Source: a virus
DNA length: 34,992 bases
Reading direction: 5' to 3' (one strand)
Virus record (IMG/VR): IMGVR_UViG_3300048554_000673
Span: 1-34,992 of that record
The first letter of the stretch is position 1. The number at the start of each line of letters is the position of its first letter. Of the stretch, positions 5,037 through 33,268 are shown one piece after another. The notes under the pieces were generated by a model that was given only the letters and a program-made list of their open reading frames with translations, was not told where the DNA came from and made no database searches. The translations under genes and the position numbers were made by a program.

Positions 5037-5039
5037 TCT

Positions 5040-6473
5040 TTATCTCACGGTTGCTTTTTTACTTTCCATTCTATTACTCTGTCTTCCTAGTGTGGCATAT
5101 CTGGCACTACTCTCTATGGCTGCATGGATGGCAGTATCCAACTCCCTTGCCATGGGCATATTAGGATCTATGCCCTGCTCAATTAAAAATTCTTTGGCTT
5201 TGGATCGCACTGTTTCCATACCAGATGCAGATATATCAACGCCCATGCTGCTGGATATGTCTTTGATGATGGCATTCACTGGAGCTCTTGGTGCACTCCG
5301 CGCATCCCCTCCCGGCCATGGATTTTCAACGATCTCTGATTCTTCACGGCCTTTTATTTCCTCATCTATCCCCGCTTGTTGCTCTGAGGCTGGTTGAGCT
5401 GGAAGATTAGCCCCGACACCTGCTGGGTCATCTGGATCAATCACTGCGTCAGGAGTAAGCCTGTCAGCTCTGATACCAACAGGGATTGACAGTGCTGCGA
5501 AGGCATCATCTATCTGAGCACCCTTAGAGATCTCACTGTTCAGTAAGTCTAGGTGATAAGTAAGACCAGTGCCCAGCACACCCATGGCGCTATTAACTTC
5601 ATCAGCACTGCCAGCGTTGATAAGATCTTGGTACTGCTCACCAAGCTGGGATAGCATGTCGCCTACTTTTGCCATATCTCTAGGATTGGGGAGGGCATCA
5701 TTTACAGCCAGCATCTTTTCCAGACCCGCCATAAACTTCCCAAGGTTATCAATGTTCCCTTTCCTAGCTGCTTGCGCCGAGGTAGAAGCTGCGTTGGCAG
5801 CCCCATTGCCTAATTGACTACCCCTAGTTGGTGTCTTTATATATGAGGAAAGAACTAAGCTTTGCTCTACTTTGTTGAGCATCTGTTCCATGTCCCATCC
5901 AACCGTTGCCCCCTTAGATTCCAGTTTTTCTTTGAGGCTCATCATAGATTCTTTTACTTTCTTGATGCTCGCCCTGTTGGTAACATCCTGTAGTTCCTGT
6001 AGCTGCTTAGCTACTTTAGGGTCAGCCCCTTTCATGTTGAGTATCAGTTTCTCAACATCAACTCTTTGCTGAGATAGTTCTTTGATATTCTCTGCTTCAG
6101 TGCCAAGCTTGATCTTGTCTATGTAGGCTTGAGAATCTTCAGCTGTAAGTTTATTAGAAATTATATCAGTGAGCATACTTTGACCATCTTCAGATTTAAA
6201 GACTTTGCTTTGAAGATCTAGTTTGTTCAGATCAATATCAGCTTGTGAGATGGCTACACTCCCTTGAGCTTCACCAACATTCACCTTAGTAGTAAGCTCA
6301 CGCTTCTTGAGTGGGTGCATCTCTGCGGTGCGAGCCTCTTGATTACCAAGTAACTCCTGCCGTTGGCGCTCACCGCTTAGCTTGAGCTGACGTTCCTCTT
6401 CTGCTTTCTGCTCGGCTCCAAACTCAGACAAGCCTTTGTTAAGGCCACCAACTAAATCAAGGAACATACTCAT
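5040..6473 (-). CDS. Probable internal virion protein, 477 aa
   Basis: No family was recognised with certainty. The N-terminus begins with a short amphipathic stretch (MSMFLDLVGGLNKGL), followed by a strongly charged Gln/Glu/Lys helical region to about residue 80. Predicted coiled-coil character continues to about residue 200, and an Ala-rich low-complexity section lies near 225-245. The start overlaps the stop of the 75-residue gene by 4 nt (ATGA), and the stop lies 3 nt before the giant ejection protein. In podoviruses, two or three large helical proteins downstream of the tail hub usually form the ejected internal core. The assignment rests on that context plus helical composition. Confidence 0.6.
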   Translation of the reverse strand: MSMFLDLVGGLNKGLSEFGAEQKAEEERQLKLSGERQRQELLGNQEARTAEMHPLKKRELTTKVNVGEAQGSVAISQADIDLNKLDLQSKVFKSEDGQSMLTDIISNKLTAEDSQAYIDKIKLGTEAENIKELSQQRVDVEKLILNMKGADPKVAKQLQELQDVTNRASIKKVKESMMSLKEKLESKGATVGWDMEQMLNKVEQSLVLSSYIKTPTRGSQLGNGAANAASTSAQAARKGNIDNLGKFMAGLEKMLAVNDALPNPRDMAKVGDMLSQLGEQYQDLINAGSADEVNSAMGVLGTGLTYHLDLLNSEISKGAQIDDAFAALSIPVGIRADRLTPDAVIDPDDPAGVGANLPAQPASEQQAGIDEEIKGREESEIVENPWPGGDARSAPRAPVNAIIKDISSSMGVDISASGMETVRSKAKEFLIEQGIDPNMPMARELDTAIHAAIESSARYATLGRQSNRMESKKATVR

Positions 6474-13712: not shown

Positions 13713-15837
13713 TGTTTCCTCCTCCTGATTCCTGCTGCTTGGCTTCTATGTCAGCCAACTTCATTAGCTTCTTGGTATCATCACCAGCCGTCTTGACTTG
13801 GGCTTGGATCTGTGCCAATGCCAGTCTGGTCTCAGCACTGAGCTGACCTTTGACCTTCTCCATCTCAATGTCGAACTGATGCTCCATGAATTGTTTCTGT
13901 TGCTCCATCTGCATTCCAGCAGCTTGTTGCTCCATCTGCTGTTGCTGTTGCTGTTGCATCTTAACTGCAACCTCATCCACAGTAAGCATATAACGTTCGG
14001 GGTCGATGTTACCAGCGATGGCCCAGTCTTCCACGATAGGATCCGACTTGATCTTAACCTGAAGTGCAGGCAGCTGCTGACTCATCAAGAGCAATCTCTC
14101 AAGATCTAGCTTGCGGAGATGCTTGTTCTCAAAGGTAGCGAACCCAGTAGCCTGAATAGAGAAGTCACCTTTGACGTTGTTATCTTTAAGGAACTCCATG
14201 TTCCAATCGTAGAATGATTCAACGATGGGTATCCAAGCGTGCATGTCGTAGTTCTTTAACACAAGACCAAGTTGCTTACTAGCACTGGCGATCTTCTGGT
14301 TCTCGGCATAGGCAGTAGATGATTCACCACCCCCACCACCTTCAAGAATCCTTGGTACGCCAGAGCTTTGATCAGCCCACTGCACCATGGTGCCAATGGC
14401 TTCAAGCACACCAGCTGTCACATCAGGAAAGAAGATCGGTTGGATCAACTTACGAACGTCACCATCTTGGAATGCTCCATCGAACTCCCAGTTTCTACCC
14501 GGATAGAGTTCAAGGCTTTCACCACGCTTGAGCTTACTCTTATCAATGGCAGTCATGAGATTACCGCTGAGTCTCTTGTTGTCGATGTACATTCTCATCA
14601 AACGGTTGACGTTCTTCTGAGCGTCAAAGATCTTCTGAGCTACACCGCGACCGAAAGCAGATCCGGGAACCTTAGTCCATGGCACCATGTGATATGGTCT
14701 ACGTCCACCGGGGAATGGATTAACCACACACTTGATCACTCTCTGGTTACAGAAAATAACTATGGCTTCTGTGAAATGTGAATCCCTTCCTTCAAGATCG
14801 TCGATATAATCTTTCAAGTATTTATTCTGGACTGATCCAGAGAATGTGAACACGTCGTAGTTTAAATTTGAGTGGCCACTCTCTACTGCTTCTGATGGCC
14901 CCTCGGAGGTATTGAATCCATGCTGCGGCTCATTCTTCTCTTCGATGTCGAGAAGCAAACGATCAAACTCATCCTTGATATATTCGTATTCGTACTCCTC
15001 GGCATCGGCATCTTTGCTGATGATGGAGTCACTTGGGAACACAAGAGAGTATAGGTCTTGAAGTCCGGGAGCTGAGATCTTTTCACGGTGGAAGAATCCA
15101 ATCCCATTCTGAACCATGCCACCACACTCAGGATCTGGCCAGCAATCCCATGGACTGAGGTTTGATACCGTTGGCACGTCCTCATACACTTCTTTCTTAG
15201 TGAAGCCTTGCTTTCCTTTAACCCATCGGTAGCGTTTCTTTCTTATGACTCGTGGGCTTTCTAAGAAAGCTGTGCCATATAGGGCTCCGTCATAGATGGA
15301 GATCAAACCAACACTGGCTGCATCTGATTCAGCGAACTGATCATCTAATCTTTTCTTCATGTTCTTGATGCGAGCTTCCAGCGTCTTCTTATCCATAGCC
15401 ATCTGAGCGACTTGTTGCTGACCCTCTGGCCCGATAGGTGTTTCACCATCTGCCATTTGTTCCATAGCAGCCATCATAGCTGGGTCATCAGGGATAGGAG
15501 TTGTCTTCACATCATAAGGAAACTTGCCTCCTTTGAAAAGAATATCCTGTAGCTGAGCCTGAGCTGCTGTTACCTTCTGTTCAGTGAGGGGATAGAAAGC
15601 TTTCGACCTCCACGATTTGGATGCTCGTGTCGATGTCTCACTCTCGGAGTCATCAAACTTCCCATTGAAGTTATCATGGGCTCTTGTCCAGTCAGCTTCA
15701 ATCGCTACCTTGCGGTGATCCTTCCAGCCTTCGAGGAGACCACTGAGGTGTTGAAATAACTTGGGTGCTCTAGTCTCATCAGCCTCCTTGGAATCCATGG
15801 GTCTAACCGACATAGGTAATATAGGTTTATCTTGCAT
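13675..15837 (-). CDS. Portal protein, 720 aa
   Basis: The large protein immediately downstream of the terminase large subunit (1-nt TGATG overlap), of a length typical for N4-like or P22-like podovirus portals. Visible features include an N-terminal charged helical region, a wing/stem section with FGRGVAQKIFDAQKNVNRL (about 408-426), and the later helical QLPALQVKIKSDPIVEDW segment. Near residues 621-645 there is a Gln-rich tract (seven Gln in a row) followed by more Gln/Met repeats, and the C-terminus is Gly/Asn/Arg-rich. It forms the dodecameric DNA entry ring that docks the terminase and later the tail hub. Confidence 0.87.
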   Translation of the reverse strand: MQDKPILPMSVRPMDSKEADETRAPKLFQHLSGLLEGWKDHRKVAIEADWTRAHDNFNGKFDDSESETSTRASKSWRSKAFYPLTEQKVTAAQAQLQDILFKGGKFPYDVKTTPIPDDPAMMAAMEQMADGETPIGPEGQQQVAQMAMDKKTLEARIKNMKKRLDDQFAESDAASVGLISIYDGALYGTAFLESPRVIRKKRYRWVKGKQGFTKKEVYEDVPTVSNLSPWDCWPDPECGGMVQNGIGFFHREKISAPGLQDLYSLVFPSDSIISKDADAEEYEYEYIKDEFDRLLLDIEEKNEPQHGFNTSEGPSEAVESGHSNLNYDVFTFSGSVQNKYLKDYIDDLEGRDSHFTEAIVIFCNQRVIKCVVNPFPGGRRPYHMVPWTKVPGSAFGRGVAQKIFDAQKNVNRLMRMYIDNKRLSGNLMTAIDKSKLKRGESLELYPGRNWEFDGAFQDGDVRKLIQPIFFPDVTAGVLEAIGTMVQWADQSSGVPRILEGGGGGESSTAYAENQKIASASKQLGLVLKNYDMHAWIPIVESFYDWNMEFLKDNNVKGDFSIQATGFATFENKHLRKLDLERLLLMSQQLPALQVKIKSDPIVEDWAIAGNIDPERYMLTVDEVAVKMQQQQQQQMEQQAAGMQMEQQKQFMEHQFDIEMEKVKGQLSAETRLALAQIQAQVKTAGDDTKKLMKLADIEAKQQESGGGNNGRPRRPRNSNR

Positions 15838-17297
15838 CAGTTATCCTCTTCAAACAGGTCATCCATGAATCTTTCTCTTGAGTTTTTATCTCGCCGTATA
15901 TCATCTATTGTATCTGGATGCCTGCTGGAATTAAGAGATAGGCACAGGTATTTAATGACATCATAGCTGTGATTCTCTTGATAATCAGCAAGGCGCTCAG
16001 AGTGTATCTTATGTCGGGACAGCGTAGGTAAAGTTCTTATTGTGTGGACGCAGTCCCTAGTGAAGTACATTTGTGGTCTGTCATCGTATCCTATAAGCCT
16101 AGTTCTTATAAGCTCAGTTCCAGTTATCTCTGAACCCGGGCTCTTAATGGCTGGCACAAAGGTGATGCCCAGTTTATAGAAGGCATCGTAGATAGGGGTG
16201 CCATTGAGAACTTGGAAGATCTGTGTGTCAGCTGGCCCCGGCTTGATGAACAGATTATCTCCATCACCCATCTCTCGTCTGCGGATCTCATTAGCCACTT
16301 CATGGGCTGACATCTTCACACCCTCATTGATCTTATTACCGGGCTTCCATCCATAAAACTCGTTGTAGAAAACGATGGACCCAGCGGGGAAACACCCACG
16401 CTTATTGTAAAGCTCCTCTCCAGTAGAGATAAAAGCCCTGAGATAGCAGAAAGGTGTGGAGCTACCCCAATCAAAACACCTGAACCTATCGAAGTGCTCT
16501 GGTATATCCTGTGGTGTGATTGAATGATTGATGACATGCTTGCTTGGATACCAAACATCAGAGAACATAGCACCTAGAGCCACAGACCAATCACCATGAC
16601 GCCAAGCCTTACGGACAACTGGGTCTTTGATACGCTCTAACTGGCGCATGTATGTGGGGTCGCTGGCTAGATGGGGGTTATCATCTACTGTAGACTGGAA
16701 GAAAGCCCTAGTCTGATCGAACTCATTCTTAATGATCCTGTTGCCTGCTGGCCACGGGTCAATGAAGTAGTTCTTAACTGCTGTGTGGTTAAACCCACCG
16801 GGGTTTCCAGTATAAATGATCTGGCCTTTGATGCCATGGGGGTTACGAAGACAAGCCATGAATGTGTCATTGATTGTCTCGAAGGGTAGCTTGAAGTCAC
16901 AGATCTCATCGAATCCAATCATGGTGTACTCGTGACCCTTGTACTTTTTCAAGTCGTCGATGTGTTCAATCTGCCTCATCTTGAGCCAAGCTCCCTCGAA
17001 GGGGCCTTTGAATCTGAACTCTCTTGTCTGACCTGAGATGTAGGTAGCTATGCCGTTGACCTCTAGTATGTCCTTGCCTTTATCAACAAGGTCAGAGAGA
17101 TCATCGAAGTTCTCACGGAAGAATATGATCTTACTCTTGCCTCTATTCTTCTCGATGTGCTGTAGAACTTTGCCGAATAGGAACGAACTTTTCCCGCTCC
17201 CCCTCCCTCCGCCAAACATAACCTCATCGCAATCACAGATGAAAGCGTTGGTCTGTGGGCCGGGGTTCGGCTTCCAGATAATATTCTGGTTGCTCAT
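15837..17297 (-). CDS. terL: Terminase large subunit, 486 aa
   Basis: The packaging motor ATPase/nuclease. Walker A is GGRGSGKS at residues 30-37. Walker B ends in FDE with Asp130 and catalytic Glu131. A coupling-type motif YTGNPGG is at about 162-168. The RNase-H-like nuclease domain has acidic residues in the expected places: Asp276 (CFDWGSS), Asp357 (GPADTQ) and Asp446 (YDVIKY). Length is normal. The start overlaps the collagen-like gene by 4 nt, and the stop overlaps the portal start by 1 nt. The small-subunit candidate is far away, at 33268, at the head of the operon. Confidence 0.95.
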   Translation of the reverse strand: MSNQNIIWKPNPGPQTNAFICDCDEVMFGGGRGSGKSSFLFGKVLQHIEKNRGKSKIIFFRENFDDLSDLVDKGKDILEVNGIATYISGQTREFRFKGPFEGAWLKMRQIEHIDDLKKYKGHEYTMIGFDEICDFKLPFETINDTFMACLRNPHGIKGQIIYTGNPGGFNHTAVKNYFIDPWPAGNRIIKNEFDQTRAFFQSTVDDNPHLASDPTYMRQLERIKDPVVRKAWRHGDWSVALGAMFSDVWYPSKHVINHSITPQDIPEHFDRFRCFDWGSSTPFCYLRAFISTGEELYNKRGCFPAGSIVFYNEFYGWKPGNKINEGVKMSAHEVANEIRRREMGDGDNLFIKPGPADTQIFQVLNGTPIYDAFYKLGITFVPAIKSPGSEITGTELIRTRLIGYDDRPQMYFTRDCVHTIRTLPTLSRHKIHSERLADYQENHSYDVIKYLCLSLNSSRHPDTIDDIRRDKNSRERFMDDLFEEDN

Positions 17298-21497: not shown

Positions 21498-24400
21498 TTA
21501 TGTCAGGTCTGTACTATGCGGTATCAGCTTTGATGACTTCTGGACACCTTGATTTATGATGGTGAGGTCTGCTTTCTTGGCTAAGATAGCCGTGGCCTCA
21601 ATATCGGCGAGGCTTATATTATTAAGGCTGGAAGTAGCCAACCCATTGGCTGTGATCCCAGCATTATCTGGTTCACTTACCATATCAGTGTTTGTGGTGG
21701 TAGTGTCAACTAAGGTCACATTGGCCACCGCATCCACAGCAGGGTTAAAATCGTTCAATGCTGTGATCTGTGCTTGGGTGACATCATGTTCTGCTAAAAG
21801 TAACGCCTGTCTTGCGTCTGCTTGGGTTTTGGTTTCTAGCGCGTCAATCTTCCCTTCGTTAGCATTGACTTCAGCGATGATCGAAGCTTGTGCATCAGTG
21901 ACGTTCGTGGGGGTTGAGAATCCAGTTGCGGTGATCCAGTTTCCTTGGTTGGTTTGGAGTTCGCTGGTATCTGCAAGTATTCCCGCAATGCTCGCGTTGT
22001 CAGGCGCTGTCGTGTTGGCTCCATCGGTTCCTCGCATAACCTCATTCTCAAAGCTTGCGTCCAAATCAATAGTTGCGCCCGCTGAATTGTCAGTGATGGC
22101 AGTCTTGGGAATTCCACGAACAGAGATAACTCCACCAGTGTTTGAAACGTCAAGATTCGCCTTGCCCGCGTTGTACTCTAGCGTTGTGTTGCACCCTGCC
22201 GTTGAGCCAGAGAGCAGTAATCCACCGTTGTAGCTCCTCACGCTCAATTGAGTGTTTGTACCGTGGGTGATTTGTGGTGCTGTTAATCCCGCGATGTTAC
22301 TCACGCAGCGAGACAAGAGAACACTCGCACCATCCTCAAGAGTCATCGCGCCCGCAAAACCACAAGTGACATAAGAACCGTTCAAGCCCGTTGTGCCGTC
22401 GAGGAGGTTAACAGTCTCACAAGCATGAATCCCTGTTGAAGCGCCACCCATGTTCATTTCGCTAAAGGTTGAGCCCGTGAGGTCATAGCCTGCTGTCAGC
22501 AAAGTGTCCGTAATGTTACCACCCTTCACGATAAAGCCTTGGAGGTCGGCGTCTAGAGTGACTGTGCCACGGATACGAATATCGCGGAAACCATAATTGT
22601 CTGCTAGAATCTTGGCGTTTGACCAAGAGTTCACGGGGTTGCTTTGAGTTCCGTATGGGTAAACGCTCGCATTTGTTCCGTTAACGGGATCAATCCAGAT
22701 TTGATATTGGTACTCACTCAAGACCTGAGCAGCGGAAACGGTGAAGTATTTGACATCACCGTTGGAGTTATCCAAGGGCGTACCGTCTGTTGATTGAACG
22801 AAGGCCGCAATCGTCGCCCCATCGTCCCCCGCGTTGTCACGAATATGACGAACAGCAGTCTCATAAAACAGATAAGCACCAGTCGGTAGCGTCACATAAG
22901 ACACCTCTCCACCACCGTTCATCAAGTAGCTCATGCCGTCCTGAGTTTGCAGAGCATCCTCGACCTCATCAAAGCAAGAACGAACTGGCGCTTCACCGTC
23001 CCCGATTCTTAGATTCATCCGTGAGCCATCAGCTTGAGGCACAACGGAAAGGAAAGCAGATGTTGATGCTGTGTATGCCGCGGAGCCGTCAGGCAAAAGC
23101 TTTTGACTTTGAGTAGCATCAACGGTAACATCTGAACCTGTGGCGCTGAATGTCCCGATTATTGGAGCATATCCCGCTCGGTTGATGCAGTATGACCATG
23201 TGCCCGTTGAACCGTTAGGCACGTTATAAATTACGGTTCCCGTTTGGCTTGTCTGTCTGCCTTGAACGGTTGTGTTGTCATTCTCTAGGAACTGAACGTT
23301 TGCAGAGGTGAGGTTGTTGATCGTGACCGTAACCCCTGCAATTACAAAGTTTACCGTATCTCCCGTGGTTAGTGGCTGCTGTTGCCCCGCGTCTAAGACA
23401 ACATCAATACTTCCTCCGCTTGAGTTATTAAGCGTTGAAGCTGCGTCGAAAGTGAACCCAGTTGCGTCATACGTCCCGCCATTGGCAACGTCGATAGTTG
23501 TTGTGGCGTCTGCGCTTCCCGTCCATGTCGCTTGTTCTGCGTTCCATGTCATGTTTTGGAGGACGAGGTCGTTAAATATGGTATTCCCTGTGCCGTTGCT
23601 TAGTGTGCCATCTTTGAAACCACCTGTGAAAGTGGATGCCGTGATGGTTAGCGTGGTCCCTGTGAGGTCATAAACCGTGGCCCCTGAGAAGTTCACAGCA
23701 ATGTCTAGTGTTTTGCAGTCTATGATGTTGCCTTCTCTGCCTACTGTCGGTTCAGATTCTCCCAAATAAGCAGCAACTAGTTCAGACTTTGCTCTGTCAT
23801 ATAGCTTTTGAGGAGTCTCCAATTCAGTGTAAGCATCTACAGTTGCTTTATTTGTCTCTATAATGGATAAATCAGGAGTCATTGGCAATGATTCTGTCAG
23901 TGTCCCTAATCCGTATAGAGCTGTATTCCATTGAGTGATTGACCTATCATACGCAATAATGTTTAAAGGTATAGTCTCAGAATTGGTTCTATCGTCTAGT
24001 ACTATATTACCTGTACCTCCCTCTATTAAGATAGCAAGCATAAGAAGCAAGTTATCGTTAATAGGCGTTGATTGATTAATACCAGTATATTCTTTATCTA
24101 ATGTATCATCTTGTGAACTATCAGTTGCGTTCATAGGACCAACTTGTCGCAATCCGTTATTTATGTCTTTTCCATAATAAGAAAATTCTGATAACGATAC
24201 ACCATTCAAGTCTTCTGGAGTTATGTCAATTTGTCTTAGAACATGTGCATATAAATTTCGACTTGATTCTGCTGAAAAAGATACTTGTTTAAATGCATTT
24301 TGAATATATATATCTTCTGATCTATGAGAGTCATTTTGAGCACTTGTTACATCGGACGTATTGGTATTCTCTGAGTTATCTAAGTCTATTAATGTTTGCT

Positions 24401-26744
24401 CTGGATGAACCCCATTATATGTTTGAAATTCTCCTTTCTTAAAAATAAAAGCAGCATTATTAAATCCATATGTAGTAAAGAAACGAGACTGCAAAACAAG
24501 TCCGTCAAAAACCATATTATTAATATTTAGATTTGAACCACCACCTACACTAGTAGGAGTAAGTCTTAATTGAACTTCTTGTGTACTCGATAGACTCAAT
24601 AATGTTCCATCATTGATAGTTAATGTAGAACCTCCTTCTATTCTTAATGTTCCGAAAGTTCTTATGGTTCCACCATTCCAAATAAATGTTCCTCCTGATG
24701 ACACATACATCATGAAGTAAGAGAAGAAGTCATTAGAACTTCCTATGAATTCTATACCAGAACCTTGGGAGTACGTGTCTACTCCGTTTACATTTTGGAA
24801 TACTCCTAGTCTTAAAATACCACCACTTGCAACTCTTAATGGAGTTAAAGTTGTGTTGTTCTTTGCAATAGCACTTAATACAATTTTTTCTTTAGAGGGG
24901 TCTATCTGCAAGTCCCCGTCTATTTTAAGTCTGACATCTTCAGCAAAGGTATAGGTTTTGAAATCCCCTGTTTCAATGTAGTCTACAAACTCTAAACCTC
25001 TTAATCCTAATAAATCAGTTTCGGTTGTTGAAGTTGTTAAAGTAACTACTTTATCAGTTGTTCCACTTTCCACCCAATTAGTTGATGGATTAAGACCATC
25101 TCCTTTAACAATGGTTCCACCTGTTGCCGTTATTGTTGTATTGTTCAGTTTGGCATTATTAACACCTAATACAGTAGAAGTCCCACTTCCGATGTGCTCA
25201 ACCTCGGTGGGTTCAAATCCTGAGATAGTGAAGCTAGTCACGGTGTCGGTGTCCACAACAAACTTATCGGCCGCATCCTCCGTATACGTTGCCCCATCAG
25301 TCACCGTGACTATTCCAGCTTGCAGCACTGTTATTGTGCCTCCGTCAGTGGTGGTGGATATGACTGTGCCCTGTGCAACTGTGATAGTTATGTTGTTTAC
25401 AGAATCATTATGAACTTTAATAGTCCCACTAGATGAAAGCCCTGACAAATCATAAGACCCCGCACCACCACTGCCTAGCGTTATGTCATTCCCCGAATTA
25501 TTAGAGAATATAGCATTAATGGCTGAGTAATCCCCTGCACCAGAGGTGATGACTAAACCATCGGCATCACTCTCATTATTACGAATGATAGCCCCTGTGA
25601 TCGTCGTGTCTGACGTTATCTCTACCCGCCAAGCCCTGTCAAATACACAGTCTGTCGCCGTGGCGTGAGCAAGCTTAACACTGTTGGCATTGTAAAATTG
25701 GTTCGTATCGAAAAGGCATGTGCCACTGGTTGACCCCGTGACCTCAATATCGTATTCACCTCCACTTGAGCGACTAACACCTGAGAAGATAAATCCCGAT
25801 TGAAACCGCACATAGTCAGATGCACTCTGATTAATGGTCACTAAACGACCGTGCCCCGCTGTGCCATCACCAACAAAGGCCGCCATATATCCCTCTATGC
25901 CTACCTCATCAATAAGTTGAGCGGCGCGACTGGGATAGAAAGCAATTTGAGAAACCGATTGATCCCACCTTGTTAAAGTGGACCCATCGCCGATTGTGAA
26001 CCCATATTGAACAGCATAGGTTCTGCCCAAACCACCTGCTTGGTCAATACGATTATAAGCAAACCATCGCCCCGAATCACCATTATCTGGCAATGAACCT
26101 CGTTTATCCGAAATAAAATCAAGGTCGATAGGAGTAGAGACATCACCATCTGTAACAATCGGAGGGTCGCAAGTTTTCAGCCTACCCATGTAAACATCGA
26201 CTTGATCACTAGAGGCAACATCAGCATGCAATTCTACATCATTAATATCGGTCCAGTCGATTGTTCCACTTGATGCGTCTGGTGTTGCGTTTCTGTCGAT
26301 AACAAAAGCTTGACCATTTAAAGCGTTTGCGCCTCCAATGGGTTCATACGTTTTATATCCACCGAAAGAACTTAACGTGATGGAAAATAAATCAGAACCG
26401 CCGATATTATATCGAACCCAATTCCCCGAACCATCAACTACGAGGAATCGCAACCCCCCATTTGCAAGAGTATTGATATTCCCAAAGACATTGTACTGTT
26501 GTGAGGCGAGTTGAAAATAAATATATTGCCTTGTGGAAAAATCACTGGATGAAGTTGCTAGGGGCAACCTGCCGCCGTAAAGACCAGTGACGGCAGAATT
26601 GGTATCAAAACCCTCCCCTCCCTGCAGACCAATAAAGTTGCTGGCCGCTGTTGCAGATTCACGCAATGGAGCGACCATCGTTGAACTACCTGTTTGCAGC
26701 TCCTCGATGTTGGTCATCGCATAATCAATACTTGGTGATGCCAT
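21498..26744 (-). CDS. Giant beta-helical tail fibre/tailspike-like protein, 1748 aa
   Basis: A very long Thr/Gly/Asn/Ser-rich protein with repeated short beta strands (TITVAQGTV, GGSTLTINDGTLL, GTVTLDADLQ), as in right-handed beta-helix spikes. An IWIDPVNGTNASVYPYGTQ block (about 1347 onward), followed by many short beta repeats, resembles receptor-binding shafts of marine phages. The C-terminal about 160 residues are helical with coiled-coil character. DNA composition changes sharply within it: roughly 23.73-25.19 kb (residues about 520-1005) is much more AT-rich than the two flanks, which suggests a transferred middle section. I see no enzymatic active site, so depolymerase activity is unproven. 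Confidence 0.7.
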   Translation of the reverse strand: MASPSIDYAMTNIEELQTGSSTMVAPLRESATAASNFIGLQGGEGFDTNSAVTGLYGGRLPLATSSSDFSTRQYIYFQLASQQYNVFGNINTLANGGLRFLVVDGSGNWVRYNIGGSDLFSITLSSFGGYKTYEPIGGANALNGQAFVIDRNATPDASSGTIDWTDINDVELHADVASSDQVDVYMGRLKTCDPPIVTDGDVSTPIDLDFISDKRGSLPDNGDSGRWFAYNRIDQAGGLGRTYAVQYGFTIGDGSTLTRWDQSVSQIAFYPSRAAQLIDEVGIEGYMAAFVGDGTAGHGRLVTINQSASDYVRFQSGFIFSGVSRSSGGEYDIEVTGSTSGTCLFDTNQFYNANSVKLAHATATDCVFDRAWRVEITSDTTITGAIIRNNESDADGLVITSGAGDYSAINAIFSNNSGNDITLGSGGAGSYDLSGLSSSGTIKVHNDSVNNITITVAQGTVISTTTDGGTITVLQAGIVTVTDGATYTEDAADKFVVDTDTVTSFTISGFEPTEVEHIGSGTSTVLGVNNAKLNNTTITATGGTIVKGDGLNPSTNWVESGTTDKVVTLTTSTTETDLLGLRGLEFVDYIETGDFKTYTFAEDVRLKIDGDLQIDPSKEKIVLSAIAKNNTTLTPLRVASGGILRLGVFQNVNGVDTYSQGSGIEFIGSSNDFFSYFMMYVSSGGTFIWNGGTIRTFGTLRIEGGSTLTINDGTLLSLSSTQEVQLRLTPTSVGGGSNLNINNMVFDGLVLQSRFFTTYGFNNAAFIFKKGEFQTYNGVHPEQTLIDLDNSENTNTSDVTSAQNDSHRSEDIYIQNAFKQVSFSAESSRNLYAHVLRQIDITPEDLNGVSLSEFSYYGKDINNGLRQVGPMNATDSSQDDTLDKEYTGINQSTPINDNLLLMLAILIEGGTGNIVLDDRTNSETIPLNIIAYDRSITQWNTALYGLGTLTESLPMTPDLSIIETNKATVDAYTELETPQKLYDRAKSELVAAYLGESEPTVGREGNIIDCKTLDIAVNFSGATVYDLTGTTLTITASTFTGGFKDGTLSNGTGNTIFNDLVLQNMTWNAEQATWTGSADATTTIDVANGGTYDATGFTFDAASTLNNSSGGSIDVVLDAGQQQPLTTGDTVNFVIAGVTVTINNLTSANVQFLENDNTTVQGRQTSQTGTVIYNVPNGSTGTWSYCINRAGYAPIIGTFSATGSDVTVDATQSQKLLPDGSAAYTASTSAFLSVVPQADGSRMNLRIGDGEAPVRSCFDEVEDALQTQDGMSYLMNGGGEVSYVTLPTGAYLFYETAVRHIRDNAGDDGATIAAFVQSTDGTPLDNSNGDVKYFTVSAAQVLSEYQYQIWIDPVNGTNASVYPYGTQSNPVNSWSNAKILADNYGFRDIRIRGTVTLDADLQGFIVKGGNITDTLLTAGYDLTGSTFSEMNMGGASTGIHACETVNLLDGTTGLNGSYVTCGFAGAMTLEDGASVLLSRCVSNIAGLTAPQITHGTNTQLSVRSYNGGLLLSGSTAGCNTTLEYNAGKANLDVSNTGGVISVRGIPKTAITDNSAGATIDLDASFENEVMRGTDGANTTAPDNASIAGILADTSELQTNQGNWITATGFSTPTNVTDAQASIIAEVNANEGKIDALETKTQADARQALLLAEHDVTQAQITALNDFNPAVDAVANVTLVDTTTTNTDMVSEPDNAGITANGLATSSLNNISLADIEATAILAKKADLTIINQGVQKSSKLIPHSTDLT

Positions 26745-27101: not shown

Positions 27102-27335
27102 TCACAATAAATGTCTATCACAACGAATGCAAGAACCGTCCGTGAGATGGTTCCTAGTTTCACACTTAGGGCATACCATTACCGTGGACTTGGTTACCAG
27201 ATCCGTATTGATGGTTTCCAGTTCTGGTGTGTAGATTTCCGTTGGCACATCCCAGTCGTGAGTTTCCTCCTGACGAGCTTTCAACTTCTCTTTCGCTCTC
27301 CCGACTAGCCTTGCCATGATCGTCTTGCCACCCAT
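27102..27335 (-). CDS. Zinc-ribbon protein, 77 aa
   Basis: The C-terminus has four cysteines in a CPKC...CIRC arrangement (Cys55, Cys58, Cys69, Cys72), a clear treble-clef or zinc-ribbon metal site. The N-terminal about 25 residues are basic and helical. The start is the ATG at 27335, with GGAG placed 7 nt upstream and a 1-nt TAATG overlap with the membrane-protein gene. A second Met at residue 7 is less well placed. Possible roles are nucleic-acid or protein binding; a role in transcription or host takeover is not shown. Confidence 0.65.
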   Translation of the reverse strand: MGGKTIMARLVGRAKEKLKARQEETHDWDVPTEIYTPELETINTDLVTKSTVMVCPKCETRNHLTDGSCIRCDRHLL

Positions 27336-27754
27336 TAACGAACTCCAGAAACAACTCGACCCACTTGGAGAGCCATCGCGTGTAGAAGCGCATAAGCAAT
27401 CCCTCCTGTGGTGATCTCGTAGACGGAGTTGCCAGAGGCTTTCCAGTGGATGAAGAGGAAGTCAAACTGCGTGGGCGACGAATCGGGGTTGAACGTCCAG
27501 AGAACTTCTGAAGGTTCGTTGATGCAGAGAAGGGCACACGCGCAAACTGTTGCGACGAGCATGAGGGTAGAAGCACTGTAAAAAGGCTTGTCTTGAACAG
27601 TAGCAAGATGATCAACCAGAGCTTTCGAGTCATTAGATTTTGATACCTGCTTGAGTTGAAGTAACTTGTACTTATTGGCCTGACCTTTCTCGTAGACACC
27701 GATCATGGTCCCTAAAGCACTCGACCCTGCTACACCTAAAAGTTCTGCTATCAT
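27335..27754 (-). CDS. Small membrane protein, 139 aa (lysis-cassette or membrane candidate)
   Basis: Hydrophobic segments are visible at about residues 59-78 (YSASTLMLVATVCACALLCI) and 116-134 (TGGIAYALLHAMALQVGRV), with a weaker one at 2-20. A charged linker of about 35 residues follows the first. Size and topology would fit a phage holin, but no holin family could be assigned. Its neighbours are two other small membrane/coiled-coil proteins upstream and a zinc-ribbon protein downstream. It overlaps both adjacent genes (ATGA and TAATG), so the cassette is probably co-translated. Confidence 0.62.
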   Translation of the reverse strand: MIAELLGVAGSSALGTMIGVYEKGQANKYKLLQLKQVSKSNDSKALVDHLATVQDKPFYSASTLMLVATVCACALLCINEPSEVLWTFNPDSSPTQFDFLFIHWKASGNSVYEITTGGIAYALLHAMALQVGRVVSGVR

Positions 27755-28005
27755 TTCTTTCCCTCGATGTAGGGCAGTCTAGCTTCGATGGATTTAATAC
27801 TACCGTTTAGGTCCGAGCATTGTCTATAGAGCTCGCGGTCATTGTTGCGATACCGTTCATCCATCTGTTTTAGCTCGCCCTCCAACCGTCTGTCCTGTTC
27901 ATCACTTTTCACTTCGTTCTTTGTGATAAGTCCGAACACCACCTTAAACACGAAAGCAACAACGCCTCCGATAATAAACTGTGCCCAATCCGATAAGAAG
28001 TTCAC
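27751..28005 (-). CDS. Single-pass membrane coiled-coil protein, 84 aa
   Basis: One N-terminal hydrophobic helix at about residues 9-27 (QFIIGGVVAFVFKVVFGLI), then a highly charged predicted coiled coil (about 32-78). This membrane-anchor plus coiled-coil layout is common among small phage lysis proteins, including inner-membrane spanin-like and holin-like proteins, but the sequence does not decide which. It overlaps the 113-residue gene and the 139-residue gene by 4 nt each. Confidence 0.6.
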   Translation of the reverse strand: MNFLSDWAQFIIGGVVAFVFKVVFGLITKNEVKSDEQDRRLEGELKQMDERYRNNDRELYRQCSDLNGSIKSIEARLPYIEGKK

Positions 28006-28343
28006 TTATCTAACTTCCCTTCGAGTCTCATCAGGATGTCGTTGTTCTTCTGCATCACAACTTTGAACTCACCGAACTCTTGTTTGGTGTCCTCAATCTC
28101 ATCAGCGTTAGCTTGGATGCGTTCAGCATTAGTGTTTACATGGAGCTTTACTGGGGCAACGGCATCATCAGCAGCTTGCTGTGAAAGCCACCAAGCACCT
28201 GCACACGCGAGTCCTAACATCGTGCCCACTGCCGTCATCGTAGCGTTGCGCTGCTGAATCTCAGCCTGCTTAATAGCAATCCAAGCATCTGACTGTCGGC
28301 GTTGCATGTCTTCTCGACTCTGTTCTGTGGGGGATAAATTCAT
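28002..28343 (-). CDS. Membrane/coiled-coil protein, 113 aa
   Basis: A charged, helical N-terminal 33 residues precede one membrane segment at about 35-54 (ending in AGAWWLS), and then a coiled-coil C-terminus (about 69-113). It overlaps the receiver-domain gene start region and the following gene by 4 nt (ATGA). The layout suggests an inner-membrane protein whose coiled coil projects to one side, as in small lysis or membrane-remodelling proteins. No endolysin is visible in this cassette, so a lysis role is only a possibility. Confidence 0.6.
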   Translation of the reverse strand: MNLSPTEQSREDMQRRQSDAWIAIKQAEIQQRNATMTAVGTMLGLACAGAWWLSQQAADDAVAPVKLHVNTNAERIQANADEIEDTKQEFGEFKVVMQKNNDILMRLEGKLDK

Positions 28344-28711
28344 TTCGTCGTGGGAAAACCTAGAAGGTCATAAAGTTCGTCTGGGTCTAAAGGTTTCTGG
28401 AACTCAGCGACGATGTTGACCCCCTGTTCCCTTAACTCATCCCCAATCCCATGTAAGAAATCAGCGCACGATAAGAGCACAATACCGATTCCTGTAAGTC
28501 TGTCTTTATTGTCACCGAGTATCTCAGCACCACTCTTCGGCTCCATGTGCAGATCAGAGATGATGAGATCAACTCGATGCTTATCGAGAGCGTAGAGGAA
28601 CTTACGTTCGGTGTCCACTGTGATCACCTTATCGACATCAGGGATAACCGACACCACCGCTTGATAGTAGCGATGGAGGTCAGTGTCGTCGTCGATAAAG
28701 AGGATGTTCAT
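28340..28711 (-). CDS. Stand-alone CheY-like receiver-domain protein, 123 aa
   Basis: A complete response-regulator receiver domain and nothing else. Acidic pocket residues are in ILFIDDD (Asp7-Asp8). The phosphoacceptor is Asp53 in DLIISDLHM. The switch Ser81 lies in IVLLSCADF, and the conserved Lys106-Pro107 in FQKPLDP. All the key positions of CheY (Asp12/13, Asp57, Thr87, Lys109) thus have counterparts, so phosphorylation is expected to be possible. There is no DNA-binding or enzymatic output domain. It overlaps the fibre stop by 1 nt (TAATG) and the next gene by 4 nt, so it is built into the late operon. No histidine kinase is visible in the window; a host kinase would be the likely partner. 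Confidence 0.88.
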   Translation of the reverse strand: MNILFIDDDTDLHRYYQAVVSVIPDVDKVITVDTERKFLYALDKHRVDLIISDLHMEPKSGAEILGDNKDRLTGIGIVLLSCADFLHGIGDELREQGVNIVAEFQKPLDPDELYDLLGFPTTK

Positions 28712-31700
28712 TATGAGCTAGTCACAGCTTCCCAAGCAGAGCCGTTGTAGAAGTTCAGCTTGTTGGTGGTTTCGTTGAACAGTAGCAACCCATCGGCTGG
28801 AGACACCACAGCGTCACGTTCCGCTGTCGTAAGACTAGGAGGCTGAATACCGTTAGGCCCGATCTGAGCGAAGGGTGCTCCTGATTCTTTGAAGATCACC
28901 TTGCCGTCACTCTGGATTTCCATTGTGTTATCAGGAGTGGCGAGCGTTGCTTTGCTGAATCGCTGTGATCCAACGAGCTGAAGCTGAAGGTCGAATTGGG
29001 TTGTGTACGCTACGTCACCAAGAGCCTTGAAGGTTTCTTGATCTACGAAGGCGTTTGCACTGTGAGCGGCAGTCGGTGGTGTGAAATCCGTAGTCCACTC
29101 AGCCACTCCGATCATCAATCGCCACTCATCGAGATGTCCTATCTCACCACCAACACCGATACGGATGTCATTTGTGTTCTCAAACAGAGAGAATCCCCCA
29201 GCGAGAGTGACGTTTCCGACAGAGACACCGTCAACATAAATATCAACCTCAAGACCATTTCTAACGACTGCGACATGTTGCCACACCCCTGCTGTGATCT
29301 CTGTCCCTGTGGTTAAAACCGTTCCAGCACTTGCCCCATCGTCACTCATTCTGAGTCTAATGGTCCCTGCAATGATCTGGATATCCATAGAGAAAGACCC
29401 AGAGGTATTGCTGTAAAGTGCCTTTGTAGATATGAGATCTACAGGTCTGACCCAACAATCGAAAGTGAAATCCTGAGTAGTCAGGTCAAGGTCAGTGCTG
29501 TGCGTGATGTAAGCGCCATCGGCTGAAGCATCCAACTCAAGGGATGCCCCACCAAACTTGCTTTGTGCGGTATCAATTTCTGCCGCTCCAGCAGGAGTAA
29601 CAGTGAAGCCTCCTACTGAGTCTGTCAATGTTGTGCTCCCATCTACACCATCAAGATGTAGTAGAATCATGGTTGTGTCACCAATGAAGCCTTCACCATC
29701 CACAGCGTAAGCCACATTCACTTTACCAGTTCCACTGATTAAAGCGGAAAGCTCATCATAAGCCTTGAAGCTTGATGGGCTGAATGTTCCTGACTCTCCA
29801 GTTGCTAGGTTGGTGTCGAAGGTGTTGTTCATTGATACGTGATTTAGAGTGACAAGGGCGAAAGACCCGAAGTGGTTTAGTCCATTGGATGAGTCTACCC
29901 TCCAATACCTACCAGATGTCACTGTTGGTAGTACCGTCAGCGCCACCTCTCCATTGGTGCTACCGTCAAACCCGCTAAACGCAGAGAGTACGTCAGTCCA
30001 AGGTCCAGATATAGAGGGTCCAACCTGTAACTTCGTATCCGCTGGGAAGAAGTTACTCTGTCCTCCCGTGACAGGGTCGTCACCTAAATACGCTCCATAT
30101 ATATCATGGGACGCCCCTAGATCAAAAATGAAGTCTCCACCGTATATAGCATATCGAGCAGGCGCGTCTTGACTCATGAACCCATCCACCGTGTGGAAAG
30201 ATGTGATTGCGACACCTCCGTTGTCAATGAAATTTACCCCCAAGGTGTAGTCCACCGACGAAGAAACGTCACCTAGCAATAGCTCATTCCCGTACTCATC
30301 AGCTACAGTCACATCGACATTAGCACCAACGTTAGTGTAATCTGAGTCAGCTACGCTTTGATCACTCACCGCACCAGCTAGGCCGAATGTTCCCGATGTG
30401 GCGATCACATCACCATTCGTGTTCACTTGCATCGTGTTCCCTGCTGGTGTGCTCAATGCAAGCTTCGAGAAGCGTTGAGAGCCAACTAGCTGAGTTCTCA
30501 AGTTGAACTGAGAGGAGTACGCTATTGTGTCTAGGGCTTTGAAGGACTCTTGATCGTAAGCTTGCTGGTATTTCACTCCGAAATTGTAGGTGAAATTTGC
30601 TCCAGCCATAGCCTGATTGGTTTGATTCCCCGTTAATGATCCTGCTACAAACTGAATGTCGTAACCACCATTGGCGTATTTAAAGTCAACACTGTTACCT
30701 ACTAGAGATGCTCCGATATAGTCAGTATCAGCATTCAGAACGGTGTCAGAGATAGCGAATGCGTGAGGCGTGTCCTCAACAAAAGCTACAGAAGATTCAG
30801 TGCCGACACTTGTCAGATCAAAGTTGGAAGCGTTGGGCGTTGCCGTGTAATACTCTACACTCTCTGTTCCTGTGGAGCACTCGATTGAGATTTCACTGAT
30901 AGTGACGTTCCCACTCAGCCCTAAGTCAGATAGCTTCACGAGAACAGTATTCACTGCGGTCGTTAAGTCCGTCGTAGGTCGAACCGTAGGGGCATCGACA
31001 ATCTCACCTTGAAAAGCACCACCATCCACAGAGTAAGCAAGCTGAATCTTCCCCGCACCGTTGATTGGTAAATCGTTCTCGTCAGTCGCTACGAAAGAAC
31101 TAGGGTCGAATGATCCAGCTCCTAACGCTAAGAGGGAATCGAAGGTGTTGAGGGTTGTTGCGGGAATGCTCTCAAAGTACCTCATTTCCGCGATACTTAC
31201 GGATGCTCCACCGTTGACCGATGTCACGTTTACCCTGTAATATCGGTAACTAGCTGGAGAGTCCATATTGATCACACCTGAGATATTTGGCGCTTGAATG
31301 TGGTCTTGATCAGTGACGGTATGTACGACATCCCAATCCGAATCGTTGTTACTGCCCTCAATAGTGTAGTCTCTAGGTCCACGGTTTACCTCTGCACCTC
31401 CCATCTGATAGGACACAAATGTCCTTGGCGAAACCAAATCAATCTTGAGCCATCCTGTAGTACCTGCGCCAGAGAGCCACCCATGAGAACTCCCAGTGCC
31501 CGACGTGAGTAGACCGTCAAAAGCTTTGTATGGAGAATACGCTCCAGATACCGAACTAGCAGAGGTGACATATGGGGTTGAATCATCTGTATTAAGATTC
31601 CCATCATTAAACTGGGTTCCAGAAGTGATAAGAGAATTGCTGTACTCGTCTGCCACACCTACATTAACATTAAAACCCAAGTTAGTGAAGTCGCCAGCAG

Positions 31701-32244
31701 TCACAGTACGTTCTGTGTCAGAAGCGGATTGGCCGAACTCACCACTCTTGGCGGTGATCTTACCAGTGTTGTCTATCTGAGCTACGATTTCATCAGTAGC
31801 GTTAAGAATCTCAAGTCCATCACCACCAGCGGGAGTCTTGAATTTGTTAGCGATTAGCGTGTCAGGCTCAAGGGCCGTGACCTCATTCGTTGCCGCGTTT
31901 CTTGTGATGATCTCACGTACTGCGTCAATCTGAACCCAGACTGAGCCATCCCAGCGCCATTCCATAGCACCGTTGTCGGTCTGAATGGTTCCACAACCTG
32001 TGATGGTGGCGATGAGAGTACCACAGTTGCCGCCTTTATCATATACTCTGAGCCTGTCACCCAGAACGGGTGAAGCGTTAGGCGTGATCGTGATCGCGTT
32101 AGAAGTAGTATCAACGGGGACCATGACGGACCCTTCATCAATTACTGTGTAAGTAGTACCTGTCTGTACTGCTATCTCTTCGTAGGTGTCTTTGGCATCT
32201 GAGACACCCCCGGCTCCTGATGCGCTCTGTGGATTAATAGGCAT
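28711..32244 (-). CDS. Modular tail fibre with discoidin-like and laminin-G-like domains, 1177 aa
   Basis: The N-terminal about 165 residues form a fibre attachment/shaft region (GTLIATITGCGTI, WRWDGSVWVQ). Two copies of a module of roughly 450-500 residues follow. Each contains a VADEY stretch (about 178-205 and 628-655), a GSF.PSSF.A.DE block (about 367-413 and 808-856) and a QLVGSQRFSK block (about 563-595 and 1067-1100). A clear F5/8-type discoidin-like domain sits at about 225-358. The second copy holds a weaker discoidin-like segment and then a laminin-G/concanavalin-like domain (about 856-1056). The C-terminus ends in LLLFNETTNKLNFYNGSAW, a familiar fibre-tip motif. These domains suggest sugar binding on the host surface. 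It overlaps the receiver gene by 1 nt. Confidence 0.78.
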   Translation of the reverse strand: MPINPQSASGAGGVSDAKDTYEEIAVQTGTTYTVIDEGSVMVPVDTTSNAITITPNASPVLGDRLRVYDKGGNCGTLIATITGCGTIQTDNGAMEWRWDGSVWVQIDAVREIITRNAATNEVTALEPDTLIANKFKTPAGGDGLEILNATDEIVAQIDNTGKITAKSGEFGQSASDTERTVTAGDFTNLGFNVNVGVADEYSNSLITSGTQFNDGNLNTDDSTPYVTSASSVSGAYSPYKAFDGLLTSGTGSSHGWLSGAGTTGWLKIDLVSPRTFVSYQMGGAEVNRGPRDYTIEGSNNDSDWDVVHTVTDQDHIQAPNISGVINMDSPASYRYYRVNVTSVNGGASVSIAEMRYFESIPATTLNTFDSLLALGAGSFDPSSFVATDENDLPINGAGKIQLAYSVDGGAFQGEIVDAPTVRPTTDLTTAVNTVLVKLSDLGLSGNVTISEISIECSTGTESVEYYTATPNASNFDLTSVGTESSVAFVEDTPHAFAISDTVLNADTDYIGASLVGNSVDFKYANGGYDIQFVAGSLTGNQTNQAMAGANFTYNFGVKYQQAYDQESFKALDTIAYSSQFNLRTQLVGSQRFSKLALSTPAGNTMQVNTNGDVIATSGTFGLAGAVSDQSVADSDYTNVGANVDVTVADEYGNELLLGDVSSSVDYTLGVNFIDNGGVAITSFHTVDGFMSQDAPARYAIYGGDFIFDLGASHDIYGAYLGDDPVTGGQSNFFPADTKLQVGPSISGPWTDVLSAFSGFDGSTNGEVALTVLPTVTSGRYWRVDSSNGLNHFGSFALVTLNHVSMNNTFDTNLATGESGTFSPSSFKAYDELSALISGTGKVNVAYAVDGEGFIGDTTMILLHLDGVDGSTTLTDSVGGFTVTPAGAAEIDTAQSKFGGASLELDASADGAYITHSTDLDLTTQDFTFDCWVRPVDLISTKALYSNTSGSFSMDIQIIAGTIRLRMSDDGASAGTVLTTGTEITAGVWQHVAVVRNGLEVDIYVDGVSVGNVTLAGGFSLFENTNDIRIGVGGEIGHLDEWRLMIGVAEWTTDFTPPTAAHSANAFVDQETFKALGDVAYTTQFDLQLQLVGSQRFSKATLATPDNTMEIQSDGKVIFKESGAPFAQIGPNGIQPPSLTTAERDAVVSPADGLLLFNETTNKLNFYNGSAWEAVTSS

Positions 32245-32689: not shown

Positions 32690-33268
32690 TCAAGGGAATA
32701 ACTCCTCCTTAGTGGGGTCGTCACCATCCTGTAGCCTGTTCTCAGGGCTGGGTAAGGCCACAGTTCTGGCTGAATCACCGTCAATTGCACCAATATCTAT
32801 GACCTCAAGGGGCTCTAAATGCCCTTGAAATACCTCTCCGATGATAGGTAATACGTTAACTTTGTGATCAACGTGGACCTCTTGCACTACTGGGGCCTCG
32901 TAGCCAGTCATCTTATTGAGTAGCTCTACGGCTTTGAGGACCGTTAAAGCACTGAGTCCGGGTCGCCTCCTTCCCTTTTCATAGTCCAATATCATCCCTT
33001 TCAGGATTGCAGCTTGAGTGTCACGAGAAACGAAAGGAGAGTTTCTGTTCTCACTGAGAGCACGATGAGCTTTCTGTTTAGTGGTGTCTTCATTAAGGAA
33101 GTCAGTTAGATCTTTCTCAGCTTGCGCCTTTTCGTTCTGGGCATTGGCAATGTCCTGACTCCTGACACGCATCAACTCATCAACCATGGCCTCCTTCTGG
33201 TAGCCATGACTTTCAAAGACTGCATTGAGATGCTGCTGTGCTTGTGTTTGTTGTGCGGTTAAAACCAT
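32690..33268 (-). CDS. terS: Probable terminase small subunit, 192 aa
   Basis: A helical protein whose central part (about 100-140: SALTVLKAVELLNKMTGYEAP, followed by a VHVDHKVNV beta segment) resembles the oligomerisation and C-terminal portal-contact regions of phage small terminases. The N-terminal about 80 residues are helical, charged and Gln-rich, suitable for a DNA-recognition helix bundle. It is the first gene of the minus-strand operon. The large subunit lies about 15 kb downstream, which is unusual but seen in some podoviruses. The ribosome-binding site before the ATG is weak. Call based on pattern recognition, not on an exact motif. Confidence 0.55.
   Translation of the reverse strand: MVLTAQQTQAQQHLNAVFESHGYQKEAMVDELMRVRSQDIANAQNEKAQAEKDLTDFLNEDTTKQKAHRALSENRNSPFVSRDTQAAILKGMILDYEKGRRRPGLSALTVLKAVELLNKMTGYEAPVVQEVHVDHKVNVLPIIGEVFQGHLEPLEVIDIGAIDGDSARTVALPSPENRLQDGDDPTKEELFP

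What the first reader, a model, noticed from the sequence alone, without database searches (positions are those of the whole stretch)
28340..28711. Phage-encoded stand-alone CheY-like receiver domain in the late operon
A complete receiver domain (Asp7/Asp8, phosphoacceptor Asp53, Ser81, Lys106) sits between a fibre gene and three membrane/coiled-coil genes, coupled to both neighbours by 1-nt and 4-nt overlaps. Receiver domains without output domains are common in bacteria but unusual inside a phage structural/lysis block. All catalytic positions are intact, so it could be phosphorylated by a host kinase and act as a phosphate sink, a decoy, or a timing signal for the membrane proteins next to it. 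The direct neighbour relation hints that its output may be protein-protein contact at the membrane.
Basis: partly seen in the sequence, partly recalled or inferred. Interest (0 to 1): 0.82.

Follow-up and report, generated by a model that had tools for sequence, protein, structure and literature searches.

The report
Phage receiver domain in lysis block
A marine phage carries a complete bacterial-type phospho-switch protein wedged between its tail-fibre gene and small membrane genes, and unrelated Alteromonas phages carry the same kind of protein inside their cell-lysis gene cluster beside a membrane coiled-coil partner, which suggests some phages use a bacterial signalling part to control when they burst the host.

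Summary
Window 28340-28711(-) encodes a 123-aa stand-alone receiver (Pfam Response_reg 5e-8, above cut-off) with Asp7/Asp8, Asp53, Ser81 and Lys106. It overlaps the fibre gene by 1 nt and a membrane gene by 4 nt. Its codon usage is native. The record is an HMO-2011-related short-tailed phage. One relative (49 kb) has a probable, sub-threshold receiver in the same slot. Another lacks it.

A position-blind search found genuine stand-alone receivers almost only in Alteromonas phages: V22, A5, PB15/XX1924, R8W/H4, R9Y, V19/R22Y. All lie within the lysis block, touching a small membrane-anchored coiled-coil gene. Neighbours are Rz spanin, endolysin or holin genes. The coil-receiver pair is shared by an autographivirus and a siphovirus. 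Control phage contigs: 0 of 35.

CheY-like proteins in V22/A5 are published, but as auxiliary genes of a "host-recognition module". I found no paper making the lysis link. Best reading: a phospho-gated cytoplasmic regulator of lysis acting through its membrane coiled-coil neighbour (about 0.45). Shown: domain, residues, position, selection. Inferred: phosphorylation, partner, effect on lysis. V19/R22Y keep the pair without the phosphoacceptor, so partner contact may be the core function. Window neighbours match no lysis family significantly.

The parts
28340..28711 (-). Stand-alone CheY-like receiver domain (123 aa; D7, D8, D53, S81, K106)
   Evidence: Pfam PF00072 5.1e-8 above cut-off; PDB and NCBIfam receiver matches; invariant catalytic columns; typical codon usage z -0.39
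28711..32244 (-). Upstream fibre/adhesin-like gene (1177 aa) with F5/8-C and laminin-G domains; TAATG 1-nt coupling to the receiver
   Evidence: Pfam and PHROG tail/baseplate matches; junction
28002..28343 (-). Small protein with a weak hydrophobic segment (34-50) then coiled coil, spanin-like layout; ATGA 4-nt overlap with the receiver
   Evidence: Hydropathy 1.40, charge before the segment; Rz-like spanin PHROG at E=0.028 only, not significant
27751..28005 (-). Single N-terminal transmembrane helix plus coiled coil, predicted cytoplasmic coil (positive charges after the helix); candidate partner
   Evidence: TM 11-27, hydropathy 2.55, K/R 0 before and 4 after
27335..27754 (-). Clade-conserved membrane protein of unknown role (homologues in G001 and G004)
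   Evidence: blastp 2e-9 and 2e-8 to the relatives; no family match; not demonstrably a 3TM holin
32690..33268 (-). Probable terminase small subunit, start of the late block (context)
   Evidence: 40% to G004; local match to a gene directly upstream of TerL in another phage
15837..17297 (-). Terminase large subunit, end of the fibre/lysis block (context)
   Evidence: PHROG 1.2e-31; 67-74% to relatives

Best explanation
The gene encodes a phage receiver domain that works as a cytoplasmic regulator of lysis. It is made late, in the same operon as the fibre and the small membrane proteins, and is translationally coupled to them. Its phosphorylation at Asp53, by a host kinase or a small phosphodonor, changes how it binds a neighbouring membrane-anchored coiled-coil protein (27751-28005 and/or 28002-28343), which in turn holds back or releases the holin/spanin machinery, so that lysis timing follows the state of the host cell. 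Shown here: receiver identity, intact residues, overlapping genes, and the recurrent position beside coiled-coil membrane genes and identified lysis genes in unrelated phages. Inferred: late expression, that it is phosphorylated, which protein it binds, and the effect on lysis.
For: A receiver search blind to position in 50,697 phage records, after setting aside evident bacterial contamination, left stand-alone receivers almost only in Alteromonas phages of unrelated types. Every one examined lies in the lysis block: V22 and A5 between a coiled-coil gene and an Rz-like spanin (phrog_4297, 7e-6 and 2.9e-8), with an annotated endolysin nearby in A5; PB15 between an XhlA-type coil+TM gene (phrog_937, 1.8e-16) and an endolysin (phrog_894, 1.6e-31), then a 3TM holin (PF11351, 3e-16); R8W and H4/4 after an annotated class II holin and a TM-coil gene; R9Y between a TM-coil gene and a GH108 endolysin (phrog_315, 1.1e-38). 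A coil gene adjoins the receiver each time, by 4-11 nt overlap or a 1-2 nt gap. R8W (Autographiviridae) and R9Y (siphovirus) share both members, receiver 47% and coil protein 26% at 1.7e-9, as if inherited as a two-gene unit. Charge bias puts most of these coils in the cytoplasm, where a receiver would be. Receiver dN/dS is 0.06-0.20. Control: 0 of 35 TerL-related phage contigs carry PF00072. In the window's own clade, G001 has a coil+TM gene similar to the XX1924 XhlA-type protein (40% over 45 aa, E=0.001) at the same site.
Against: No gene in the window next to the receiver matches a lysis family significantly, and no endolysin was identified in this record, so the lysis label here rests on layout and analogy. 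In the window and G004 the coil gene follows the receiver, whereas in the isolates it precedes it. G001 lacks a receiver, so it is dispensable. V19 and R22Y keep the coil-receiver pair without the phosphoacceptor Asp, so phosphorylation cannot be the general switch. There are no expression, binding or lysis data. Small late genes are placed next to lysis genes in many phages, so position alone is weak evidence for function.
Confidence: 0.45

Rival explanations
1. Auxiliary host-signalling gene: a CheY/response-regulator mimic that changes host chemotaxis, motility or a two-component pathway during infection (the published reading for V22 and A5).
For: Annotated as a CheY-like class II auxiliary gene in V22 and A5 (PMC7289586, PMC10579305). 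All catalytic residues are intact in most members.
Against: It does not explain the repeated position in the lysis block, or the fixed coil partner that moves with it. The switch aromatic of CheY (three before the Lys) is Glu in the window protein. Late expression, inferred from the operon, leaves little time for behavioural effects.
Confidence: 0.2
2. Lysis-block regulator acting by protein contact without phosphorylation; the receiver fold is used as a binding module and the residues are mostly inherited.
For: V19 and R22Y keep coil plus receiver next to holin-like and DUF5675 genes, with the phosphoacceptor Asp, the Ser/Thr and the Lys lost.
Against: Asp, Asp, Asp, Ser and Lys are all kept in every other stand-alone phage receiver read here, at divergences down to about 23% identity.
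Confidence: 0.15
3. Phosphate sink or decoy that blunts a host envelope-stress response to phage membrane and fibre proteins.
For: A receiver with no output domain and all residues, in an operon with membrane proteins.
Against: A sink needs no neighbour and would not need to be co-inherited with a coil gene. No kinase-binding specificity is testable here.
Confidence: 0.12
4. Fibre-assembly or virion accessory protein, belonging to the host-recognition module upstream.
For: It directly follows the fibre gene in the window, nearly so in G004 (one 73-aa gene between), and follows fibre or chaperone with one or two small genes between in R9Y1, V22 and A5.
Against: Downstream neighbours are lysis genes; in PB15, XX1924 and R8W membrane or holin genes lie between fibre and receiver.
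Confidence: 0.06

Closest known systems
CheY-like protein gp30 of Alteromonas myovirus V22 and gp11 of Alteromonas schitovirus A5 (PMC7289586, PMC10579305)
   Same: Stand-alone receiver, all catalytic residues, after fibre genes and next to small membrane/coiled-coil genes, late region
   Different: Only about 24% identical (V22); carries a C-terminal extension; the coil gene lies before the receiver and an Rz-like spanin after it; described by its authors as an auxiliary gene of the host-recognition module
'Putative DNA-binding response regulator' of Alteromonas phages R8W and H4/4 (annotated PhoB, PMC8228385)
   Same: Receiver without output domain (153 aa), ATGA overlaps on both sides, between membrane genes
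   Different: Closer to canonical receivers (Pfam 1.5e-21); follows an annotated class II holin; named for transcription although no DNA-binding domain was found
CheY / Spo0F / DivK type single-domain response regulators of bacteria
   Same: Sequence family, catalytic residues, absence of an output domain
   Different: Encoded by a phage late operon; no partner kinase seen in the record; the CheY switch aromatic is replaced by Glu
Cytoplasmic lysis regulators: T4 RIII, N4 gp62 (PMC8385771, PMC12642591)
   Same: Proposed working principle: a protein on the cytoplasmic side sets the timing of holin action
   Different: No sequence relation known; the 'Receiver domain' named in the N4 paper is a pinholin region, not a response-regulator receiver

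Membership tests
Response-regulator receiver domain (PF00072) | Profile match above the curated cut-off | tested here: met
   33.5 bits against 30.2, E=5.1e-8, residues 3-115
Response-regulator receiver domain (PF00072) | Acidic pair, phosphoacceptor Asp, Ser/Thr and Lys | tested here: met
   D7 D8 D53 S81 K106, invariant columns
Response-regulator receiver domain (PF00072) | Phosphorylation at the Asp | not testable with these tools
   needs a phosphotransfer assay
Response-regulator receiver domain (PF00072) | (beta/alpha)5 fold | tested here: inconclusive
   Single-sequence model pLDDT 60; receivers rank first but Z about 5 to 6
CheY proper (flagellar-motor switch protein) | Tyr/Phe switch aromatic three residues before the Lys | tested here: not met
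   Glu103 in the window protein (sequence)
Lysis-block receiver group (this report) | Stand-alone receiver touching a membrane-anchored coiled-coil gene | tested here: met
   ATGA overlap with 28002-28343, then 27751-28005; gene order is reversed relative to the isolates
Lysis-block receiver group (this report) | Adjacent gene matches a holin, endolysin or spanin family | tested here: inconclusive
   Met in V22, A5, PB15 and R9Y and by annotation in R8W/H4; in the window only sub-threshold (spanin PHROG 0.028)
Transcriptional response regulator (PhoB/OmpR type) | C-terminal DNA-binding domain | tested here: not met
   The protein ends with the receiver domain (123 aa)

The most novel reading that the evidence does not exclude
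Phages of several unrelated lineages have recruited a bacterial receiver domain as a phospho-gated timer or veto on lysis, working with a co-inherited membrane coiled-coil partner: a lysis-control system that would let a lytic phage read host two-component or acetyl-phosphate state before bursting the cell.
Probability: 0.35. Interest if true: 0.88.

Novelty: new variant of a known kind. Interest (0 to 1): 0.62.

Why it matters
How lytic phages set lysis time according to host physiology is largely open outside a few models such as T4. A two-gene unit (membrane coiled coil plus receiver) that recurs in lysis blocks of cultured Alteromonas phages makes a direct, simple test possible, and would reinterpret genes now filed as auxiliary or DNA-binding regulators. 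The window extends the arrangement to an uncultured HMO-2011-related clade.

Tried and rejected
Close homologues of the window receiver in IMG/VR and INPHARED: none useful. In GTDB genomes, only two hits to receivers of longer response regulators at 27-28%, so the cellular source is not traced. Structure prediction for the G004 protein failed (pLDDT 32). G004 membership is left as probable only: PF00072 is its best Pfam match at E 0.009 but below the cut-off; it does not beat shuffles against a small phage-receiver profile and profile-profile support is weak (control). The window membrane protein 27335-27754 as a GTA-type 3TM holin: no support. Most receiver hits in 'phage' records (Listeria, Staphylococcus, Acinetobacter MD-2021a, faecal contigs, Y1/Y11) look like bacterial contamination and were set aside by record type, not checked one by one. 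Bhz63 phoP is a longer regulator (239 aa) beside a possible kinase-like gene, outside a lysis block. Komp_PAO1_1 is on the strand opposite the annotated gene, likely spurious. The N4 'Receiver domain' is only a name for a pinholin region. No Rfam family or tRNA in the window.

Full report
OBSERVATION. The window is a whole IMG/VR virus record of 34,992 bases with one long leftward late block: TerS-like (32690-33268), a small gene, fibre (28711-32244), receiver (28340-28711), three small membrane genes, two small genes, two giant fibre-like genes, a collagen-like gene, TerL, portal, capsid and internal virion proteins. Portal relatives in INPHARED are Roseobacter CRP, Pelagibacter and Puniceispirillum HMO-2011 phages at 25-27%. 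The receiver is real: Pfam PF00072 5.1e-8, above cut-off; PDB best match a Colwellia response regulator at 4e-4; D7, D8, D53, S81 and K106 in place. It overlaps the fibre gene by TAATG and the next gene by ATGA. Its codon usage is that of the phage (z -0.39) and gives no sign of a recent import.

THE WINDOW'S CLADE. Portal and capsid searches gave relatives, most of 43-75% identity over the portal. Three records were read in full. G004 (49 kb) runs TerS-like - small genes - fibre - 73-aa gene - ORF 4437-4907 - coil plus C-terminal TM (4861-5301). That ORF reads as a diverged receiver (DD, LDID, SSS, GK) and PF00072 is its best Pfam match, but below the cut-off (E 0.009), and other tests are weak, so I call it probable. 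In G001 the fibre-like gene is followed directly by a coil plus C-terminal TM gene, with no receiver; that gene resembles the XhlA-type protein of Alteromonas phage XX1924 (40% over 45 aa, E=0.001). G003 does not reach this region. The receiver is therefore patchy in the clade, at a site that carries coiled-coil membrane genes.

SURVEY OF PHAGE RECEIVERS. Six tblastn searches with receivers (a generic consensus and five phage receivers: V22, A5, XX1924, R8W, V19) were run against 50,697 phage records. After setting aside records that are evidently bacterial, the stand-alone receivers in annotated phages are in Alteromonas phages of different types: V22 (myovirus), A5 (schitovirus), PB15 and XX1924, R8W and H4/4 (Autographiviridae), R9Y1-3, V19 and R22Y. 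IMG/VR added a V22-like and an A5-like contig (L080, L081). The tables are long, only part of each is printed, and not every row was inspected. As a control, PF00072 was absent from 35 phage contigs chosen only for a TerL relative or TerS-like match.

POSITION. Each receiver whose surroundings I read lies in the lysis block and touches a small coil gene. V22: fibre - chaperone - C92 amidase-like - coil gp29 - receiver - Rz-like spanin - 2TM protein. A5: fibre - chaperone - coil gp10 - receiver - Rz-like spanin - 2TM protein - endolysin. PB15/XX1924: fibre - 3TM protein - XhlA-type coil - receiver - endolysin (M15) or DUF5675 - 3TM holin. R8W and H4/4: fibre - class II holin - TM coil - receiver - TM protein - TerS - TerL. 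R9Y: (fibre) - TM coil - receiver - GH108 endolysin. V19 and R22Y: TM coil - receiver-like protein, convergent with holin-like and DUF5675 genes. Because the searches ignored position, a rough chance figure can be given: taking about 10 slots near lysis genes and record feature counts of 156, 61, 50 and 93 for four receiver groups, the product is about 2e-4. This is an order-of-magnitude inference; module exchange between phages makes the lineages less than independent.

PARTNER. R8W and R9Y share the receiver at 47% and the coil protein at 26% (E 1.7e-9) in otherwise different settings, and V22/A5 likewise share both. So the coil-receiver pair behaves as a unit. Charge bias places most coils on the cytoplasmic side, where a receiver could bind. 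In the window, 27751-28005 has that topology; 28002-28343 looks more like a spanin-type protein with an outward coil, but its hydrophobic segment is weak.

SELECTION AND RESIDUES. Receiver dN/dS is 0.06, 0.10, 0.16 and 0.20 in four pairs (the last, V22-L080, is near saturation at synonymous sites, and the PB15/XX1924 pair was saturated and gives no value). Catalytic residues are kept in every above-threshold receiver. V19 and R22Y have lost the Asp, Ser and Lys yet keep the gene pair, with the receiver-like proteins 54% identical, which argues that partner contact is basic and phosphorylation an added switch.

MECHANISM. The most likely reading is a cytoplasmic regulator of lysis acting on the coil partner, gated by phosphorylation. 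Precedents for cytoplasmic control of lysis exist in T4 (RIII; PMC8385771) and N4 (gp62 and the pinholin cytoplasmic region; PMC12642591), without sequence relation. What is not shown: any phosphorylation, any contact, any effect on lysis, or that the window's own membrane genes are lysis genes.

NOVELTY. CheY-like proteins in V22 and A5 are published as auxiliary genes of a host-recognition module, with neighbours of unknown function (PMC7289586, PMC10579305); R8W's is called PhoB (PMC8228385). Searches of the open paper library for a receiver in a lysis cassette found no such report, but subscription papers are not covered. I therefore rate the finding a new variant of a known kind: a further, deeply diverged member in a new phage clade, plus a pattern across members that points to lysis control.

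Noticed in passing
L088:4498-4950 (phage V19) and L092:2501-2965 (phage R22Y): Receiver-like proteins that have lost the phosphoacceptor Asp, Ser/Thr and Lys but keep the membrane coiled-coil partner; a natural phosphorylation-dead version.
   Followed up: partly
L018:9301-11142 and L020:2415-4286: TerL of relatives G001 and G003 is about 130 aa longer than the window's and reads GGRGCVHPDTLLDTP after the Walker A start, which looks like an intein; the window's TerL lacks it.
   Followed up: no
window 27166-27699 (-): Out-of-frame ORF overlapping 27335-27754 with a lipoprotein-like signal (LLLFKTSLFTVLLPSC), a conceivable embedded outer-membrane spanin; could be chance.
   Followed up: no
L018:5255-5524: Phospholipase-A2-like small protein (PHROG phrog_6098 1.8e-16; Pfam PLA2G12 sub-threshold) next to the clade's conserved membrane protein in G001.
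   Followed up: no
V22 ORF35, L076:2438-2836, L088:5527-5922, L092:3545-3940: DUF5675 proteins recur in the same lysis blocks as the receivers (Pfam for V22 and V19, PHROG or sequence likeness for the others); possibly a cell-wall enzyme.
   Followed up: no
window 21498-26744 (-): 1748-aa fibre-like gene with markedly different codon usage (z -7.57) and lower GC3, unlike the rest of the late block.
   Followed up: no
window 3-5036 (-): ORF of at least 1678 aa running off the record end with no Pfam match; probably an internal virion protein.
   Followed up: no
L075:5992-6390: The PB15 response regulator is annotated with a start that is too late; a start at 5992 gives the usual N-terminus and an ATGA overlap with the coil gene.
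   Followed up: yes
INPHARED records such as OR846742, CAKLQH020000003, MW462191: Many records labelled as phage that hold response regulators look like bacterial contamination.
   Followed up: partly
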